Shown here: piece by piece, positions 1 through 4,592 of the stretch
Layout: each line of letters opens with the position of its first letter
Position numbering within the stretch: position 1 is the first letter of the stretch
From: Arthrobacter sp. NEB 688
Lineage (GTDB): Bacteria; Actinomycetota; Actinomycetes; Actinomycetales; Dermatophilaceae
Assembly: GCF_013201035.1 (NCBI RefSeq)
Contig: NZ_CP053707.1
Coordinates: 3,286,001 to 3,350,000 of the forward strand
Reading direction: 5' to 3'
Length of the DNA: 64,000 nucleotides
Program-made: the position numbers and the translations under genes
The notes under the pieces: generated by a model
What the model saw: the letters and a program-made list of their open reading frames with translations, nothing else
The model's database searches: none
Told to the model about the DNA's origin: nothing

Positions 1-296
1 GCCTGCTTCGCGGCGACCGTCGGGCAGAGCACGATGTCGCCGAGGACGCCCTCCTGCGGGGGCACCCCGTCACGGCCGGGCCGCAGCTCGTCCATCGGGA
101 AGCTCATGACGTCGGTCGGGCCGGGCAGGTCCATCCACTGCACGTGGAGGGTCTCCATCGCGGCCTCGTCGACGAGGCGCAGGCAGAGGTCGGCCTGCGG
201 GTGCACGCGCATCTCGGCGAGGACGTAGCGGGCGCAGGCGACGAGCTCGAGCTCGTCGAGCGCGACCTCGGTCTCGTTGAGGACGTCGATGCTCAT
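1..296 (-). CDS. ybeY: Endoribonuclease YbeY, N-terminal part (gene runs off the window)
   Basis: Metal-dependent endoribonuclease family that matures and quality-controls 16S rRNA. About 98 N-terminal codons are visible; the C-terminal HxxxHxxxxxH zinc motif lies outside. The visible part has the conserved stretch [11 protein letters not shown] and the preceding LNxxY-like beta region, typical of YbeY. The ATG at 296 overlaps the phoH stop codon by four bases (ATGA), so phoH and ybeY are translationally coupled, the usual actinobacterial arrangement. Identification rests on the N-terminal motif plus this neighbourhood. Confidence 0.85.
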
Positions 297-2455
297 GCGC
301 CCGGCCCGTCCTGCGGGGCGGGGCGGCGGGCCGGCGCGCGGCGCGGGCCCTTCTGCTGGCCCGCGTCCCAGCGCTCGTAGGCGTCGACGATGTGCCCGAC
401 GAGGCGGTGGCGCACGACGTCGGCGGCCGTGAGCTCGCTGAAGTGGACGTCCTCGATGTCGCCGAGGATGTCGCGGACGATCCGCAGGCCGCTCGTCGTG
501 CCGCCCGGCAGGTCGACCTGCGTCACGTCGCCGGTGACGACCATCTTCGAGCCGAAGCCGAGGCGGGTGAGGAACATCTTCATCTGCTCGCCGGAGGTGT
601 TCTGCGCCTCGTCGAGGATGATGAACGCGTCGTTGAGCGTGTTGTGCGTGACGAGGTAGTCGTCGGTCACGTAGAGCGAGTCCGCCGCCGCGACCTGGAT
701 GCACATCGTCTCCGCCGTGCCGGCCGGCTCGATCGACTCGACGTAGCGCATCGGTCGGCCCCCGCCGTGGCGCAGGAAGGTGTCGCGCTTGCGCCCGAGG
801 CGGAAGGGGACGTAGCCCTCCGGGAGCCGCAGCTCGACGGTGTAGGAGTCGTGCCGGTGCTCGACCGGACGGCCCTGCGCGAGACCGGGCGTGCGGCCGG
901 CGGCCGGGCGCACGCGCCAGGTCGCCACCCCACCGAGGGAGCGCACGATCGCGACCACGTCGTCGCGCAGGCGGGGCGAGGTCGTCGAGTACTGCACCCG
1001 GCAGGTGCGGTCGGTCTGGGTGACCGGCCCACCGTCGGAGTCGAGCAGCCCCTCGAGCACCGCGAGCCGCACCCACGGCGCGTTGTCGAGGTAGACCTGC
1101 GGGACGAACTTCGTGTGGGACGTCGTGCCCGCCAGACCGAGGTCTCGCACGACCTCGGTGACCGGGTTCGCGACCCGGAGGCCGCCTCGGGAGTGGCCGC
1201 GGTGGCGCAGGACGTGGTCGTAGCCGGTCTTGCGGGTGACGTCGACGGCGAGCAGCGGCTCGCCGAGGGCCTCCTGCAGGCGCTCAACGAGCTCGGGGTC
1301 CGCCGTGGTGAACGACGGGGTGGTCGACGTCGTCAGGCAGCCGTCGCCCAGCAGCAGCCCGAGCGCGTACGGGTCCATCGGGACGTCTTGGGGCACGACC
1401 TCGACGGCGTCGACGAGGGGCAGCTCGAAGCGGTGGGCGTGGCCCCGGCGCAGCCGACCGACCATCTCGGACGTCTGCACGGTGCGCCAGCGGCCGTGTC
1501 GCCTGTCGTCCGGCGTCCGGACGGTCCAGAGGTGCTCGCCGCACGCGAGGGTGGAGGCGCCGTCCTGCGTGGTGACGCGGAAGACCTCCTTGCGGCCCTG
1601 CGGGTAGACGCCGATGACGGGGGTGGGACGGCCGTCGGAGCCGGTGACGAGGTCGCCGACCTGCAGGTCCCCGAACCGTCGGAACCCGTCCGGGGTGTGG
1701 ACCCGGCTGTCGAGGGGCTGGGCGCGGCCGCGCATGTAGGCCAGGGGTGCGACCTCGACGGTGCCCGAGGCCATGAGCTTGGGGATCGACTCGGGGTCGA
1801 CCATGTCGTGCAGCGCGTCGTAGAGCGGGCGCAGGTAGGGGTCGATCTTGTCGTTGAGGGTGCCGGGCAGGAAGCCCAGCCGCTCCCCCGCCTCGACGGC
1901 CGGTCGGGTGAGGATGATGCGGTTGACCTGCTTGGCCTGCAGCGCCGCGACGGCCTTGGCCATCGCGAGGTAGGTCTTGCCGGTGCCGGCGGGGCCGATG
2001 CCGAAGACGACCGTGTTCTCGTCGATCGCCTCGACGTAGCGCTTCTGGTTGAGCGTCTTGGGCCGGATGGTGCGCCCGCGGCTGCTGACGATGTTCATCG
2101 TCAGGACGTCGGCGGGGCGCTCCTTGGTCTGCGCGCGGAGCATCTGGATGGAGCGCTCGACGGCGTCGCGGTTGAGCGGCTGGCCGCCGTCGATGACGTC
2201 GAGGAGCTCGTCGAGCAAGCGCTCGATGAGCGCGACGTCGGCGCTCGGGCCGGCGAGGTGGAACTCGTTGCCGCGCACGTGTACCTGCACCTGCGGGAAC
2301 TGGCGCTCCATCGTCCGCAGCATCTCGTCACGGGGCCCGAGGAGCGTCACCATCTGGACGTCGGCGGGGATCGTGACCGTGTGCAGCGGCACGTGCGGTT
2401 GGCTGGGGCTGGAGCCGGCGTCGGTGGCCGGGCCGTCGGTCTGCGCGTCTGACAT
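293..2455 (-). CDS. phoH: PhoH-family ATPase interrupted by an in-frame intein
   Basis: Cytosolic P-loop ATPase of the PhoH (PhoH1/PhoL) family, encoded next to ybeY in many bacteria and thought to act in RNA metabolism. The reading frame gives 720 residues, about twice the usual length. Residues 1-244 are PhoH with Walker A GPAGTGKT at 154-161. Residues 245-605 are an intein (separate entry). Residues 606-720 resume PhoH exactly at [14 protein letters not shown] (Walker B) and continue through [14 protein letters not shown]. The spliced protein would be 359 residues, normal for the family. The joint MRGR/TLND leaves an uninterrupted family sequence. A TAGACT hexamer lies 9 nt before the ATG. 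The product is probably inactive until spliced, because the intein separates Walker A from Walker B. Confidence 0.95.
641..1723 (-). other. Class 3 type intein with LAGLIDADG endonuclease inside PhoH
   Basis: A 361-residue insert between PhoH residues R244 and T606. It starts with Ala-Gln-Pro-Leu, not Cys or Ser, and ends Thr-His-Asn followed by Thr as the +1 extein residue. Block B reads [14 protein letters not shown], with His64 and Trp66 in the B:10 and B:12 positions. Block F carries Cys341 in [15 protein letters not shown]. Block G is LVTHN with Thr359 before the terminal His-Asn. Trp B:12, Cys F:4 and Thr G:5 together are the WCT signature of class 3 inteins, which splice through the block F cysteine rather than an N-terminal nucleophile. 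Two dodecapeptide-type endonuclease motifs are present, ALGLLLGDG and [11 protein letters not shown], so a homing endonuclease domain appears intact. Activity is inferred. Confidence 0.93.
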
Positions 2456-2936: not shown

Positions 2937-3373
2937 ATGACGGTGCGGTGGACGGTGGCGGTCGACAGCGCGGACCCACCACGGGTGGCCGCGTTCTGGC
3001 GTGAGGCGCTCGGCTACGTGGACGCGCCCCCACCCGAGGGGTTCGCCTCGTGGGAGGAGTGGAACCGCTTCTTCGACGTGCCGGAGGAGGAGTGGGACGA
3101 CGGCGCCTTCCTCGTCGACCCGGAGGGCGCCCTCCCCCGGCTGTCGTTCCTCCGGGTGCCCGAAGGCAAGGCGACGAAGAACCGCCTGCACCTGGACCTG
3201 CAGGTGAGCGGGGGCGCCACCGCCCACCGGACGAGCGGCAGCAGGCGATCGGGTCGGCGGTGCGGCGGCTGGTCGCGGCCGGCGCCACGGTCCTCGACGA
3301 GCACCACCATGACGGGGCGCTGGACCACGTCGTCCTCGCGGACCCGGAGGGCAACGAGCTCTGCGTCGTCTGA
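2937..3373 (+). pseudogene. VOC (glyoxalase-like) protein gene with a frameshift
   Basis: The ATG at 2937 follows a good Shine-Dalgarno sequence (GGGAGGAA). The first frame encodes a VOC-family start (TVRWTVAVDSADPPRVAAFW) and continues to LHLDLQVSGG near 3214. Homologous continuation then appears in the +2-shifted frame (RPPDERQQAI, LVAAGATVLDE, LADPEGNELCVV) and stops at 3373. The two parts join if one G is restored to the five-G run at 3210-3214. Read as found, the first frame leaves the family fold and runs on to 3476. It could be a real frameshift mutation or a homopolymer sequencing error. The intact product would be about 145 residues, normal for this family. Confidence 0.8.
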
Positions 3374-3390
3374 GCCACCGCCGGCCGGCC

Positions 3391-4242
3391 TCACATGGTC
3401 GGGCGCGCCTGCACGACCCGCCAGCTGCGCCCCTCGGGGTCCACGACCTCGAAGAACGGCAGGCCCCACGGGCTGACCACCGGGCCCACCGCGTCGCCGC
3501 CGCGCGCCGCGACCCGGGCCTGCTCGACGACGACGTCGTCGACGTAGATCCAGGGCTGGTCGGCCGCGGGGTCGAGGGTGGCACCGTCGGGCAGCGGCTC
3601 GACGACGATGCTGGTCCCGGCGGACCGCAGCTCGAGCCACGGGTGACCGTAGGCGGTGTGCGGCAACGGGTCCGGCTCCTGCGGCAGGGGGTCGGGGGTC
3701 CCGAGGCCCAGCACGTCCGCGAGCCAGCGGGCCGCGGCGGCCGGGCGGGCGTAGCGCACGGTCAGCCCGAAGCGGGCGATGTCGCGGACGGCATGGGCGG
3801 TCGACCCGCGGCGTTCCACCCACGGCCCGAACCACTTCGGCACGGTGCGGACCCAGGCCGTGCCGCCGGCGTCCCGCCCACCCGGCCGCAGCGTGGCGGT
3901 GACGCTCACGAGCGTCCCGGTGCCGGTCGCCTCGAAGACGACCTCGGTCGAGACGTCGTCGAGCGAGCTGTCGAAGGCCAGCCGGCGACCCGGGTCCCAC
4001 GCCGTGATGCGGGCCAGCTCGAGCACGTCCTCGCCCGCCTCGTCGTACACCTCCAGGAGCCGCCCGCCGGTCCCCGGCTCGCACCGCATCGTGCGCAGGC
4101 GCCCGCCGTCGACGTGGTTGATCGGCCCCCGCACCCACCAGAGGTCGAGCTCGTCGGTGAAGACGGCGAACGCCACCTCCGGCGCCGCCGGCACCTCCAC
4201 CCGCGAGGTCGTCGTGCCCTGCTCCTGCTCCTGCTCGCTCAT
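3391..4242 (-). CDS. SRPBCC (AHSA1-like) and VOC domain fusion protein
   Basis: A 283-residue two-domain protein. Residues about 10-150 are an SRPBCC/AHSA1-type ligand-binding fold (VEVPAAPEVAFAVFTDELDLWW, ITAWDPGRRLAFDSS). Residues about 158-283 are a VOC domain (VRYARPAAAARWLADVLGL, DPEGRSWRVVQ). The ATG at 4242 overlaps the stop of the upstream ArsR gene by four bases, so the two are one coupled operon. ArsR-SRPBCC pairs are common in actinobacteria; the ligand is usually unknown and is unknown here. The N-terminus contains a Glu-Gln repeat (SEQEQEQ). The VOC domain parallels the frameshifted VOC gene that converges on it, but they belong to different subfamilies. Confidence 0.82.
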   Translation of the reverse strand: MSEQEQEQGTTTSRVEVPAAPEVAFAVFTDELDLWWVRGPINHVDGGRLRTMRCEPGTGGRLLEVYDEAGEDVLELARITAWDPGRRLAFDSSLDDVSTEVVFEATGTGTLVSVTATLRPGGRDAGGTAWVRTVPKWFGPWVERRGSTAHAVRDIARFGLTVRYARPAAAARWLADVLGLGTPDPLPQEPDPLPHTAYGHPWLELRSAGTSIVVEPLPDGATLDPAADQPWIYVDDVVVEQARVAARGGDAVGPVVSPWGLPFFEVVDPEGRSWRVVQARPTM

Positions 4243-4592
4243 CCGTCCGCTCCCGTCGTCGTGCGCAGCTCCACGTGGCGGCGGTACGCCTCGAGCTGCT
4301 CGTCCCATCCGGTCTGCACCCGGTCCAGCCACGCGCGCACCTCGTCCACCGGGCCCCCGTCGAGCCGGAAGACGCGCAGCCGGGCGTCGCCCTCCCCCCG
4401 GGCGTCGGCCACGAGGCCGGCCGCCAGCAGGGTGCGCAGGTGCTTGCTCATCGTCGGGGCGCTGACCCCGACGATCCGGGCCAGCTCGCCGGCGGGCTGC
4501 GGCCCGCGGGCCAGCTCCTCGACGACCCGCGCGCGGACCGGGTCCGCGAGGGCGCGCAAGAGGCCCGTCAGGTGCAGCGTGTCCGTCGTCAT
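4239..4592 (-). CDS. ArsR-family winged-helix repressor
   Basis: A 117-residue ArsR/SmtB-type regulator. The winged helix spans roughly residues 8-80 (LLRALADPVRARVVEELARG, then the recognition helix in VSAPTMSKHLRTLLAAGLV). The cysteine metal sites of classical ArsR or CadC are absent, fitting the non-metal ArsR group that is paired with SRPBCC proteins. It is the first gene of the pair and probably autoregulates: direct repeats and a TACCAT hexamer lie just upstream, and three 52-bp repeats lie farther upstream. Confidence 0.88.
   Translation of the reverse strand: MTTDTLHLTGLLRALADPVRARVVEELARGPQPAGELARIVGVSAPTMSKHLRTLLAAGLVADARGEGDARLRVFRLDGGPVDEVRAWLDRVQTGWDEQLEAYRRHVELRTTTGADG

What the first reader, a model, noticed from the sequence alone, without database searches (positions are those of the whole stretch)
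641..1723. Class 3 (WCT) intein with LAGLIDADG endonuclease inserted in PhoH just before Walker B
PhoH is split at MRGR/TLND by a 361-residue insert that starts with Ala, ends His-Asn before Thr, and has Trp at B:12, Cys at F:4 and Thr at G:5. That combination defines the class 3 mechanism, which is much rarer than class 1. The insertion separates Walker A from Walker B, so splicing would gate ATPase activity. The endonuclease motifs look intact, so the element may still home. I cannot say whether PhoH inteins of this class are catalogued.
Basis: partly seen in the sequence, partly recalled or inferred. Interest (0 to 1): 0.75.

Follow-up and report, generated by a model that had tools for sequence, protein, structure and literature searches.

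The report
Class 3 mobile intein in PhoH
A self-splicing, probably still mobile protein insert (an intein) sits in the ATPase PhoH of this actinobacterium; it is a new copy of a kind already known, but silent codons at its landing site, and more clearly at two other intein sites, are unusual and may be a trace of past invasions.

Summary
Window 641-1723 (-) encodes a 361-residue in-frame insert in PhoH at MRGR|TLND, with A1, W66 (B:12), C341 (F:4), T359 (G:5), H360, N361, +1 Thr and two intact LAGLIDADG motifs. Profile alignment to a solved intein with an engineered WCT triad puts W, C and T on its W, C and T; a confident model matches an intein with homing endonuclease.

Ten of 12 genomes of the genus lack it: nine have the clean empty gene, one an empty site in a frameshifted gene. 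In the family 13 of 186 genomes carry it, always in PhoH, scattered over the PhoH tree. The 80 named loci kept from one scan, and one viral contig, have the same site. Class 3 PhoH inteins are already reported in mycobacteria (PMC6195587): a new member of a known kind.

Unexpectedly, silent codons are anomalous at this site (modestly) and at two DnaB intein sites (strongly) in intein-free alleles, not at the homologous PhoH2 site. Intein-bearing alleles show it too, so resistance to homing alone does not explain it.

The parts
293..2455 (-). phoH (PhoH1, ybeZ type; gene name recalled) with in-frame intein, 720 aa precursor
   Evidence: single open frame; PF02562 7e-89 in two stretches
1724..2455 (-). 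N-extein of PhoH, residues 1-244, ends ...MRGR
   Evidence: aligned to empty alleles; an empty relative aligns through the site to solved PhoH 3b85
641..1723 (-). intein, 361 aa, class 3 signature
296..640 (-). C-extein of PhoH, starts [14 protein letters not shown]
1973..1996 (-). Walker A GPAGTGKT of PhoH
   Evidence: read; offset -91 codons from the insertion point
608..625 (-). Walker B strand FIILDE of PhoH, starts five residues after the +1 Thr
   Evidence: read
1721..1723 (-). intein residue 1, Ala (no N-terminal nucleophile)
   Evidence: Ala in 88 of 91 copies
1526..1528 (-). Trp66, block B position 12 of the WCT triplet
   Evidence: aligned with Trp of the engineered WCT structure 6riz; 91 of 91
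701..703 (-). Cys341, block F position 4, predicted initiating nucleophile
   Evidence: aligned with the engineered Cys of 6riz, where the unmodified intein 6qaz has Asp; 91 of 91
641..649 (-). Thr359-His360-Asn361 (G:5, G:6, G:7)
638..640 (-). +1 Thr of the C-extein
1343..1345 (-). Asp127 of LAGLIDADG motif 1 (LGLLLGDG)
   Evidence: Asp in 88 of 91
1034..1036 (-). Asp230 of LAGLIDADG motif 2 (LEGLLDSDG)
   Evidence: Asp in 87 of 91

Best explanation
It is a class 3 (WCT) intein with an intact LAGLIDADG homing endonuclease, at a fixed allelic site in PhoH1 (MRGR|TLN). Mechanism, inferred from its family: Cys341 attacks the Arg-Ala bond, the N-extein passes to Thr+1, Asn361 cyclises and releases the intein, and an O-to-N shift rejoins PhoH, whose Walker A and Walker B are split in the precursor. 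The endonuclease would cut empty phoH alleles and the intein would be copied in by repair. Shown here: anatomy, signature, empty sites, scattered distribution, the same site in diverged PhoH proteins and in a viral contig, erosion of the endonuclease part in some copies while the splicing residues stay. Inferred: splicing chemistry, cutting activity, present mobility.
For: Exact WCT, Ala1, His-Asn and +1 Thr; in 91 aligned PhoH inteins all invariant except position 1 (88 Ala, 3 Ser). W, C and T align to the engineered WCT intein 6riz. Model pLDDT 87; best fold match PI-SceI (E 1.7e-18), class 3 inteins MchDnaB-1 (2.8e-6) and MsmDnaBi1 (1.1e-5). Empty sites in 10 of 12 genomes of the genus, one in a frameshifted gene. 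13 of 186 genomes of the family carry it, all at this site; on a FastTree tree of 145 PhoH proteins the fewest changes are 13, one per carrier. 80 of 80 named loci kept are in PhoH at this site. Among the most extreme of the 4,095 carrier pairs, the intein is closer than its host protein: window against L147 (labelled Deltaproteobacteria MAG) 0.328 intein, 0.489 extein; L119 against L131 0.286 and 0.462. In five eroded family copies the endonuclease part keeps 30% mean identity (gaps counted as differences) against 68% in eight others, the C-terminal splicing part 76% in both.
Against: No splicing or cleavage was measured. Over all carrier pairs the intein is on average more diverged than the extein (0.331 against 0.276), the same holds for the genus's two carriers (0.233 against 0.146), and the two distances correlate (Spearman 0.42), so part of the history may be vertical. 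G+C and GC3 of the intein are close to the host gene's: no mark of recent arrival from a foreign genome. The tree is a quick one and cannot tell gain from loss.
Confidence: 0.93

Rival explanations
1. The intein is old and vertically inherited in the order, lost many times by precise deletion; the endonuclease is no longer driving spread.
For: Intein and extein distances correlate (Spearman 0.42), inteins are on average more diverged than exteins, and the two carriers of the genus are closest to each other in both. Counts of changes on the tree cannot tell gain from loss.
Against: The catalytic Asp are kept in 88 and 87 of 91 copies, which long-dead endonucleases would not keep. Some copies in strongly diverged PhoH proteins are closer in the intein than in the extein. 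13 carriers of the family need 13 changes.
Confidence: 0.25
2. The intein has become a regulatory switch: splicing is slowed under oxidative or metal stress through Cys341 (and perhaps Cys61), and so gates PhoH.
For: The class 3 DnaB intein of M. smegmatis is blocked by oxidation of its catalytic Cys with a non-conserved Cys48 (PMC6195587, passages). Here Cys61, next to block B, is kept in 84 of 91 copies. The insertion splits the two Walker motifs.
Against: Most relatives live without it (10 of 12 in the genus, 173 of 186 in the family), so no need for it is shown. That Cys61 corresponds to Cys48 was not tested. Nothing tests regulation.
Confidence: 0.1
3. The insert is not spliced, or splices by a class 1 or class 2 route.
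For: Position 1 is Ser in 3 of 91 relatives, which could allow a class 1 first step in those copies.
Against: Position 1 here is Ala. The PhoH motif around the site is nearly invariant in 132 empty alleles, and all splicing residues are invariant.
Confidence: 0.03

Closest known systems
PhoH inteins (PhoHi) of Mycobacterium fortuitum, M. xenopi and M. smegmatis (PMC6195587, PMC7360933)
   Same: Same host protein; the first two are presented as class 3 in a figure legend.
   Different: Their insertion point was not given in the passages read and neither site nor sequence was compared here. The window's copy is in another genus (the one of Phycicoccus avicenniae).
PhoH1 class 3 inteins of Micromonospora, Blastococcus, Lentzea, Nonomuraea and others (80 named loci)
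   Same: Same site MRGR|T[LI][NS], same WCT residues, nearly all 353-365 residues, 58-76% identity.
   Different: Only in sequence; no functional difference is evident.
Class 3 DnaB inteins MsmDnaBi1 (6bs8) and MchDnaB1 (6rix, 6riy)
   Same: Same splicing fold and WCT triplet (passages).
   Different: In DnaB; the solved chains are short (139-146 residues), without endonuclease.
PI-SceI (yeast VMA intein)
   Same: Same overall plan of Hint plus LAGLIDADG domain; best fold match.
   Different: About 18% identity in the structural alignment; another host protein. That it is class 1 is recalled.
PhoH intein of viral contig L148 (same contig as L479; IMG/VR, 100 kb)
   Same: Same site, 52% identity, intact motifs.
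   Different: Shorter PhoH without the long N-terminal part, locus G+C 49%. That the contig is viral rests on its collection.

Membership tests
Class 3 intein | No nucleophile at position 1 | tested here: met
   Ala1
Class 3 intein | Trp B:12, Cys F:4, Thr G:5 | tested here: met
   W66, C341, T359; aligned on the W, C and T of 6riz (the C-terminal stretch alone is weak, 6.0 bits); 91 of 91 copies
Class 3 intein | His G:6, Asn G:7 and Cys, Ser or Thr at +1 | tested here: met
   H360, N361, Thr+1
Class 3 intein | Hint fold | tested here: met
   AlphaFold2 model, pLDDT 87; Foldseek matches to inteins
Class 3 intein | Cys F:4 is essential and forms the branched intermediate | not testable with these tools
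   needs mutants and a splicing assay, as in PMC5222942 (passages)
LAGLIDADG homing endonuclease | Two motifs with catalytic Asp, and domain homology | tested here: met
   PF14528 2e-9; D127 and D230; profile match to the PI-SceI endonuclease region
LAGLIDADG homing endonuclease | Cuts the empty allele | not testable with these tools
   needs a cutting assay
PhoH intein allele (same site in relatives) | Same insertion point and sequence relationship | tested here: met
   13 of 13 family carriers and 80 of 80 named loci; L066 ends THN|TLND and reads ...GR|SL... at its start
Mycobacterial PhoHi allele | Same insertion point as M. fortuitum, M. xenopi or M. smegmatis PhoHi | not tested
   no Mycobacterium is among the 80 titles, and the passages read give no site

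The most novel reading that the evidence does not exclude
Intein target sites in this actinobacterial family carry a lasting trace of homing in their silent codons. At both DnaB intein sites, and more weakly at the PhoH site, intein-free alleles have clusters of rare or AT-ending synonymous codons; at PhoH and the DnaB P-loop site silent changes within genera also run faster than elsewhere in the gene. Candidate causes are selection for uncuttable alleles (natural resistance to homing by synonymous recoding), error-prone repair of endonuclease cuts, or conversion tracts from low-G+C phage donors. Equal anomaly in intein-bearing alleles favours the last two, or repeated gain and loss, over resistance alone.
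Probability: 0.3. Interest if true: 0.7.

Novelty: new member of a known kind. Interest (0 to 1): 0.4.

Why it matters
The element itself adds one more copy to a known kind, but the comparative set is useful. One family holds empty, full and eroding copies at one site, with the splicing residues invariant while the endonuclease part erodes, and the same intein sits at the same codon in strongly diverged PhoH proteins and in a viral contig. If the synonymous anomaly at intein sites is real and caused by homing, it would be a DNA-level record of past invasions readable in genomes that no longer carry the intein, and would make natural resistance to a homing element testable in bacteria, a question also relevant to gene drives.

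Tried and rejected
Homing resistance limited to empty alleles: rejected as the simple explanation of the codon anomaly, because intein-bearing alleles show it equally (share of non-preferred codons at the PhoH site 14.4% in 13 occupied against 12.4% in 132 empty alleles of the family, 15.8% in 80 named occupied ones; at the DnaB P-loop site 21.8% in 13 against 23.9% in 67; backgrounds 4-8%). A general Walker-motif or P-loop effect: not supported for DnaB, since Walker A of PhoH1 (GC3 0.928), Walker A of PhoH2 (0.920), DnaB Walker B (0.961) and the homologous PhoH2 site (0.944) lack the dip of the two DnaB intein sites (0.768, 0.801); the PhoH1 site (0.895) is only a little lower than Walker A. 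An effect of the Arg-Gly-Arg motif: partly possible for PhoH, because a second RGR of PhoH1 also has a lowered GC3 (0.86, 0.76, 0.99 against 0.71, 0.71, 0.86).

A second phage carrier: none seen. In the annotated phages none of 2,715 matching records covers 80% of the viral PhoH precursor in one place, 25 rows listed. GX15bay, whose gene is annotated PhoH, has a related intein with other flanks. PhoH genes of G124, G106 and G132 that match in pieces show no insert at the site: in G106 and G132 the pieces abut, and for G124 the uninterrupted site was read.

One search translated a stretch one base off and was not used. Literature limits: three papers asked for, among them the 2011 one on class 3 inteins, are not held. 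Three searches aimed at silent codons, resistance or rare codons at intein sites listed no paper on that question by title or abstract; only passages of PMC10643990 and PMC1508164 were read, and most subscription papers are outside the library, so absence from print is not claimed.

On checking I lowered the probability of the novel case from 0.35 to 0.3, because results against it (PhoH2 windows elsewhere as low or higher) had been left out.

Full report
WHAT IS THERE. The minus strand of 293-2455 is one open frame of 720 codons, PhoH. PhoH is interrupted after residue 244 (MRGR) by 361 codons at exactly 641-1723 and resumes with [14 protein letters not shown]. Pfam sees PhoH in two stretches and LAGLIDADG_3 inside the insert. 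The solved PhoH domain 3b85 aligns without a break through the site of an empty relative. The genus includes Phycicoccus avicenniae: L070 lies on a contig of the same length (170,750 bases) as the one on which G001 carries its copy.

CLASS 3 SIGNATURE. Ala1, Trp66, Cys341, Thr359, His360, Asn361 and Thr+1 are present. That second stretch is weak on its own (6.0 bits); the whole match to 6riz is strong (3e-16). The AlphaFold2 model (13 sequences, mean pLDDT 87) has PI-SceI as best match and the class 3 inteins of M. chimaera and M. smegmatis among the 31 matches with E up to 0.001. The definition of the triplet was taken from passages of PMC5222942 and PMC7891396; placing the blocks on the sequence otherwise rests on recall.

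EMPTY SITES AND DISTRIBUTION. Of 12 genomes of the genus 2 carry the insert and 10 do not; 9 of the 10 have an unbroken PhoH frame, and the tenth (G008) has an empty site with a frameshift elsewhere. Of 186 genomes of the family, 90 have some match to the intein at E up to 0.001; 13 are the PhoH allele, all at the same site, the other 12 being 51-76% identical to the window's copy. Of the 17 other loci fetched in that search, 14 bear DnaB motifs. On a FastTree tree of 145 PhoH proteins (132 empty, 13 occupied) the fewest changes are 13, one per carrier. One scan of named genomes gave 312 relatives, of which the best 80 were kept; all 80 are PhoH at MRGR|T[LI][NS]. By title they include Micromonospora, Verrucosispora, Blastococcus, Geodermatophilus, Lentzea, Nonomuraea, Pseudonocardia, Nocardioides and Isoptericola, plus MAGs labelled Deltaproteobacteria (L147), Acidobacteria (L146) and Solirubrobacteraceae (L131). 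For L147 and L131 the host protein on the same contig is also strongly diverged from actinobacterial ones while the intein is less so (window against L147: 0.489 and 0.328; L119 against L131: 0.462 and 0.286). These are among the 15 most extreme of 4,095 pairs; over all pairs the intein is the more diverged partner (0.331 against 0.276). They argue for transfer over long distances, although MAG labels can be wrong. A 100 kb viral contig (L148) has a short PhoH, locus G+C 49%, with the same intein at the same codon. No phage record in the annotated collection covered 80% of that precursor.

LIFE CYCLE. In 91 aligned copies the splicing residues are invariant apart from position 1, and the two catalytic Asp are present in 88 and 87. 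Five family copies that I judged eroded (284-356 residues; one of them, L043, keeps both Asp) have 30% mean identity in the endonuclease part, gaps counted as differences, against 68% in the eight others; the first 100 residues have 64% against 73%, the last 37 residues 76% in both groups. This fits invasion, fixation and decay (the homing cycle), and the window's copy is on the intact side.

FUNCTIONAL CONSEQUENCE. Walker A (1973-1996) and the Walker B strand (608-625) lie on opposite sides of the intein, so an unspliced precursor is unlikely to hydrolyse ATP (inference). The phoH stop codon overlaps a start codon at 296 (ATGA) of a gene read as ybeY (name recalled), so that gene's product does not depend on splicing. 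Conditional splicing is known for a class 3 DnaB intein (PMC6195587, passages) but is not shown here.

AN UNEXPECTED SIDE RESULT. Reading the empty sites I saw odd codons, for example GCA TAT ATG CGG GGT AGG | ACG CTT AAC GAT in L007, and tested this. Data: 132 empty PhoH1 alleles of the family (30 loci, 100, 2; about 40 further non-carriers were not fetched or are broken); 67 of 70 fetched intein-free DnaB alleles (3 dropped because the anchor motif was not found); and 70 of 177 PhoH2 paralogues, a gene with the same RGRSL motif that matched in one piece in each of 177 genomes. GC3 in windows of nine conserved codons: the lowest of 197 windows in PhoH1 spans the intein site (0.859; mean 0.94). 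In DnaB the lowest of 146 spans the P-loop intein site (0.717; mean 0.90), and the next separate minimum spans the second intein site (0.753). In PhoH2 the homologous site ranks 34th of 270. Arg codons AGA or AGG: 17 of 132 (12 genera) just before the PhoH site against 0-6 (at most 4 genera) in the 18 other conserved Arg columns; 26 of 67 (12 of 23 genera) at the Arg six codons before the DnaB P-loop site against 0-4 in 13 others; 2 of 70 in PhoH2.

With one value per genus and correction for amino acid, the two DnaB sites stand far above the rest of that gene (0.133 and 0.105; best elsewhere 0.05; 22 and 20 of 23 genera positive). PhoH is only just first (0.059 at centre -3; 0.044 at the site itself, rank 8 of 215; best elsewhere 0.049; 29 of 43 genera positive), and PhoH2 is not clearly above zero (0.023, interval -0.005 to 0.054). 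Synonymous differences within genera are most frequent at the PhoH site (1.30 times expected, rank 1 of 257; next region 1.24) and the DnaB P-loop site (1.79, rank 1 of 249), not at the second DnaB site (rank 30) nor at the PhoH2 site (rank 28 of 357).

RESULTS AGAINST IT. PhoH2, which has no intein, has windows elsewhere that reach the PhoH1 values: GC3 0.862, excess 0.071, synonymous ratio 2.02 near its end. So the PhoH signal alone would not convince; the case rests on DnaB and on position. Intein-bearing alleles have the same excess. LAGLIDADG enzymes can accept sites with several, mostly synonymous, changes (PMC10643990, passages). The viral copy reads ATG AGG GGT AGA at the site, so conversion from a low-G+C donor is another possibility. 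The Fisher test ignores relatedness and is not used as a probability.

VERDICT. It is a new member of a known kind, with class 3 PhoH inteins already in print for mycobacteria. The surprise is at DNA level around intein sites, clearest in DnaB, and needs a wider test before it can be claimed.

Noticed in passing
DnaB and PhoH intein sites in the family (L339-L408; L189-L321): Rare and AT-ending silent codons cluster at both DnaB intein sites (strong) and at the PhoH site (modest) in intein-free alleles, not at the homologous site of PhoH2; occupied alleles show it as well.
   Followed up: partly
L148 2063-3781 (same contig as L479): Viral contig of 100 kb with a short PhoH carrying the same intein at the same codon.
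   Followed up: yes
L139, L143, L144 (and L066 by its junction): PhoH inteins with Ser instead of Ala at position 1; the first three have the full WCT triplet, which might permit two routes of first attack.
   Followed up: no
L047 958-1878: Eroded PhoH intein in which part of the endonuclease is replaced by a Gly/Ser/Val repeat, still in frame.
   Followed up: no
L049, L052: DnaB genes with two inteins, one at the P-loop (GK|S, THN end) and one at LRESG|S whose first residue is Cys.
   Followed up: partly
window 293-296: phoH stop and the next gene's start overlap as ATGA, as in a phoH-ybeY operon (gene name recalled).
   Followed up: no
window 2937-4592: Small genes that look by eye like VOC/SRPBCC-type and ArsR-type proteins lie between a HIT-type gene and an RsmE-like gene near phoH and dnaJ.
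   Followed up: no
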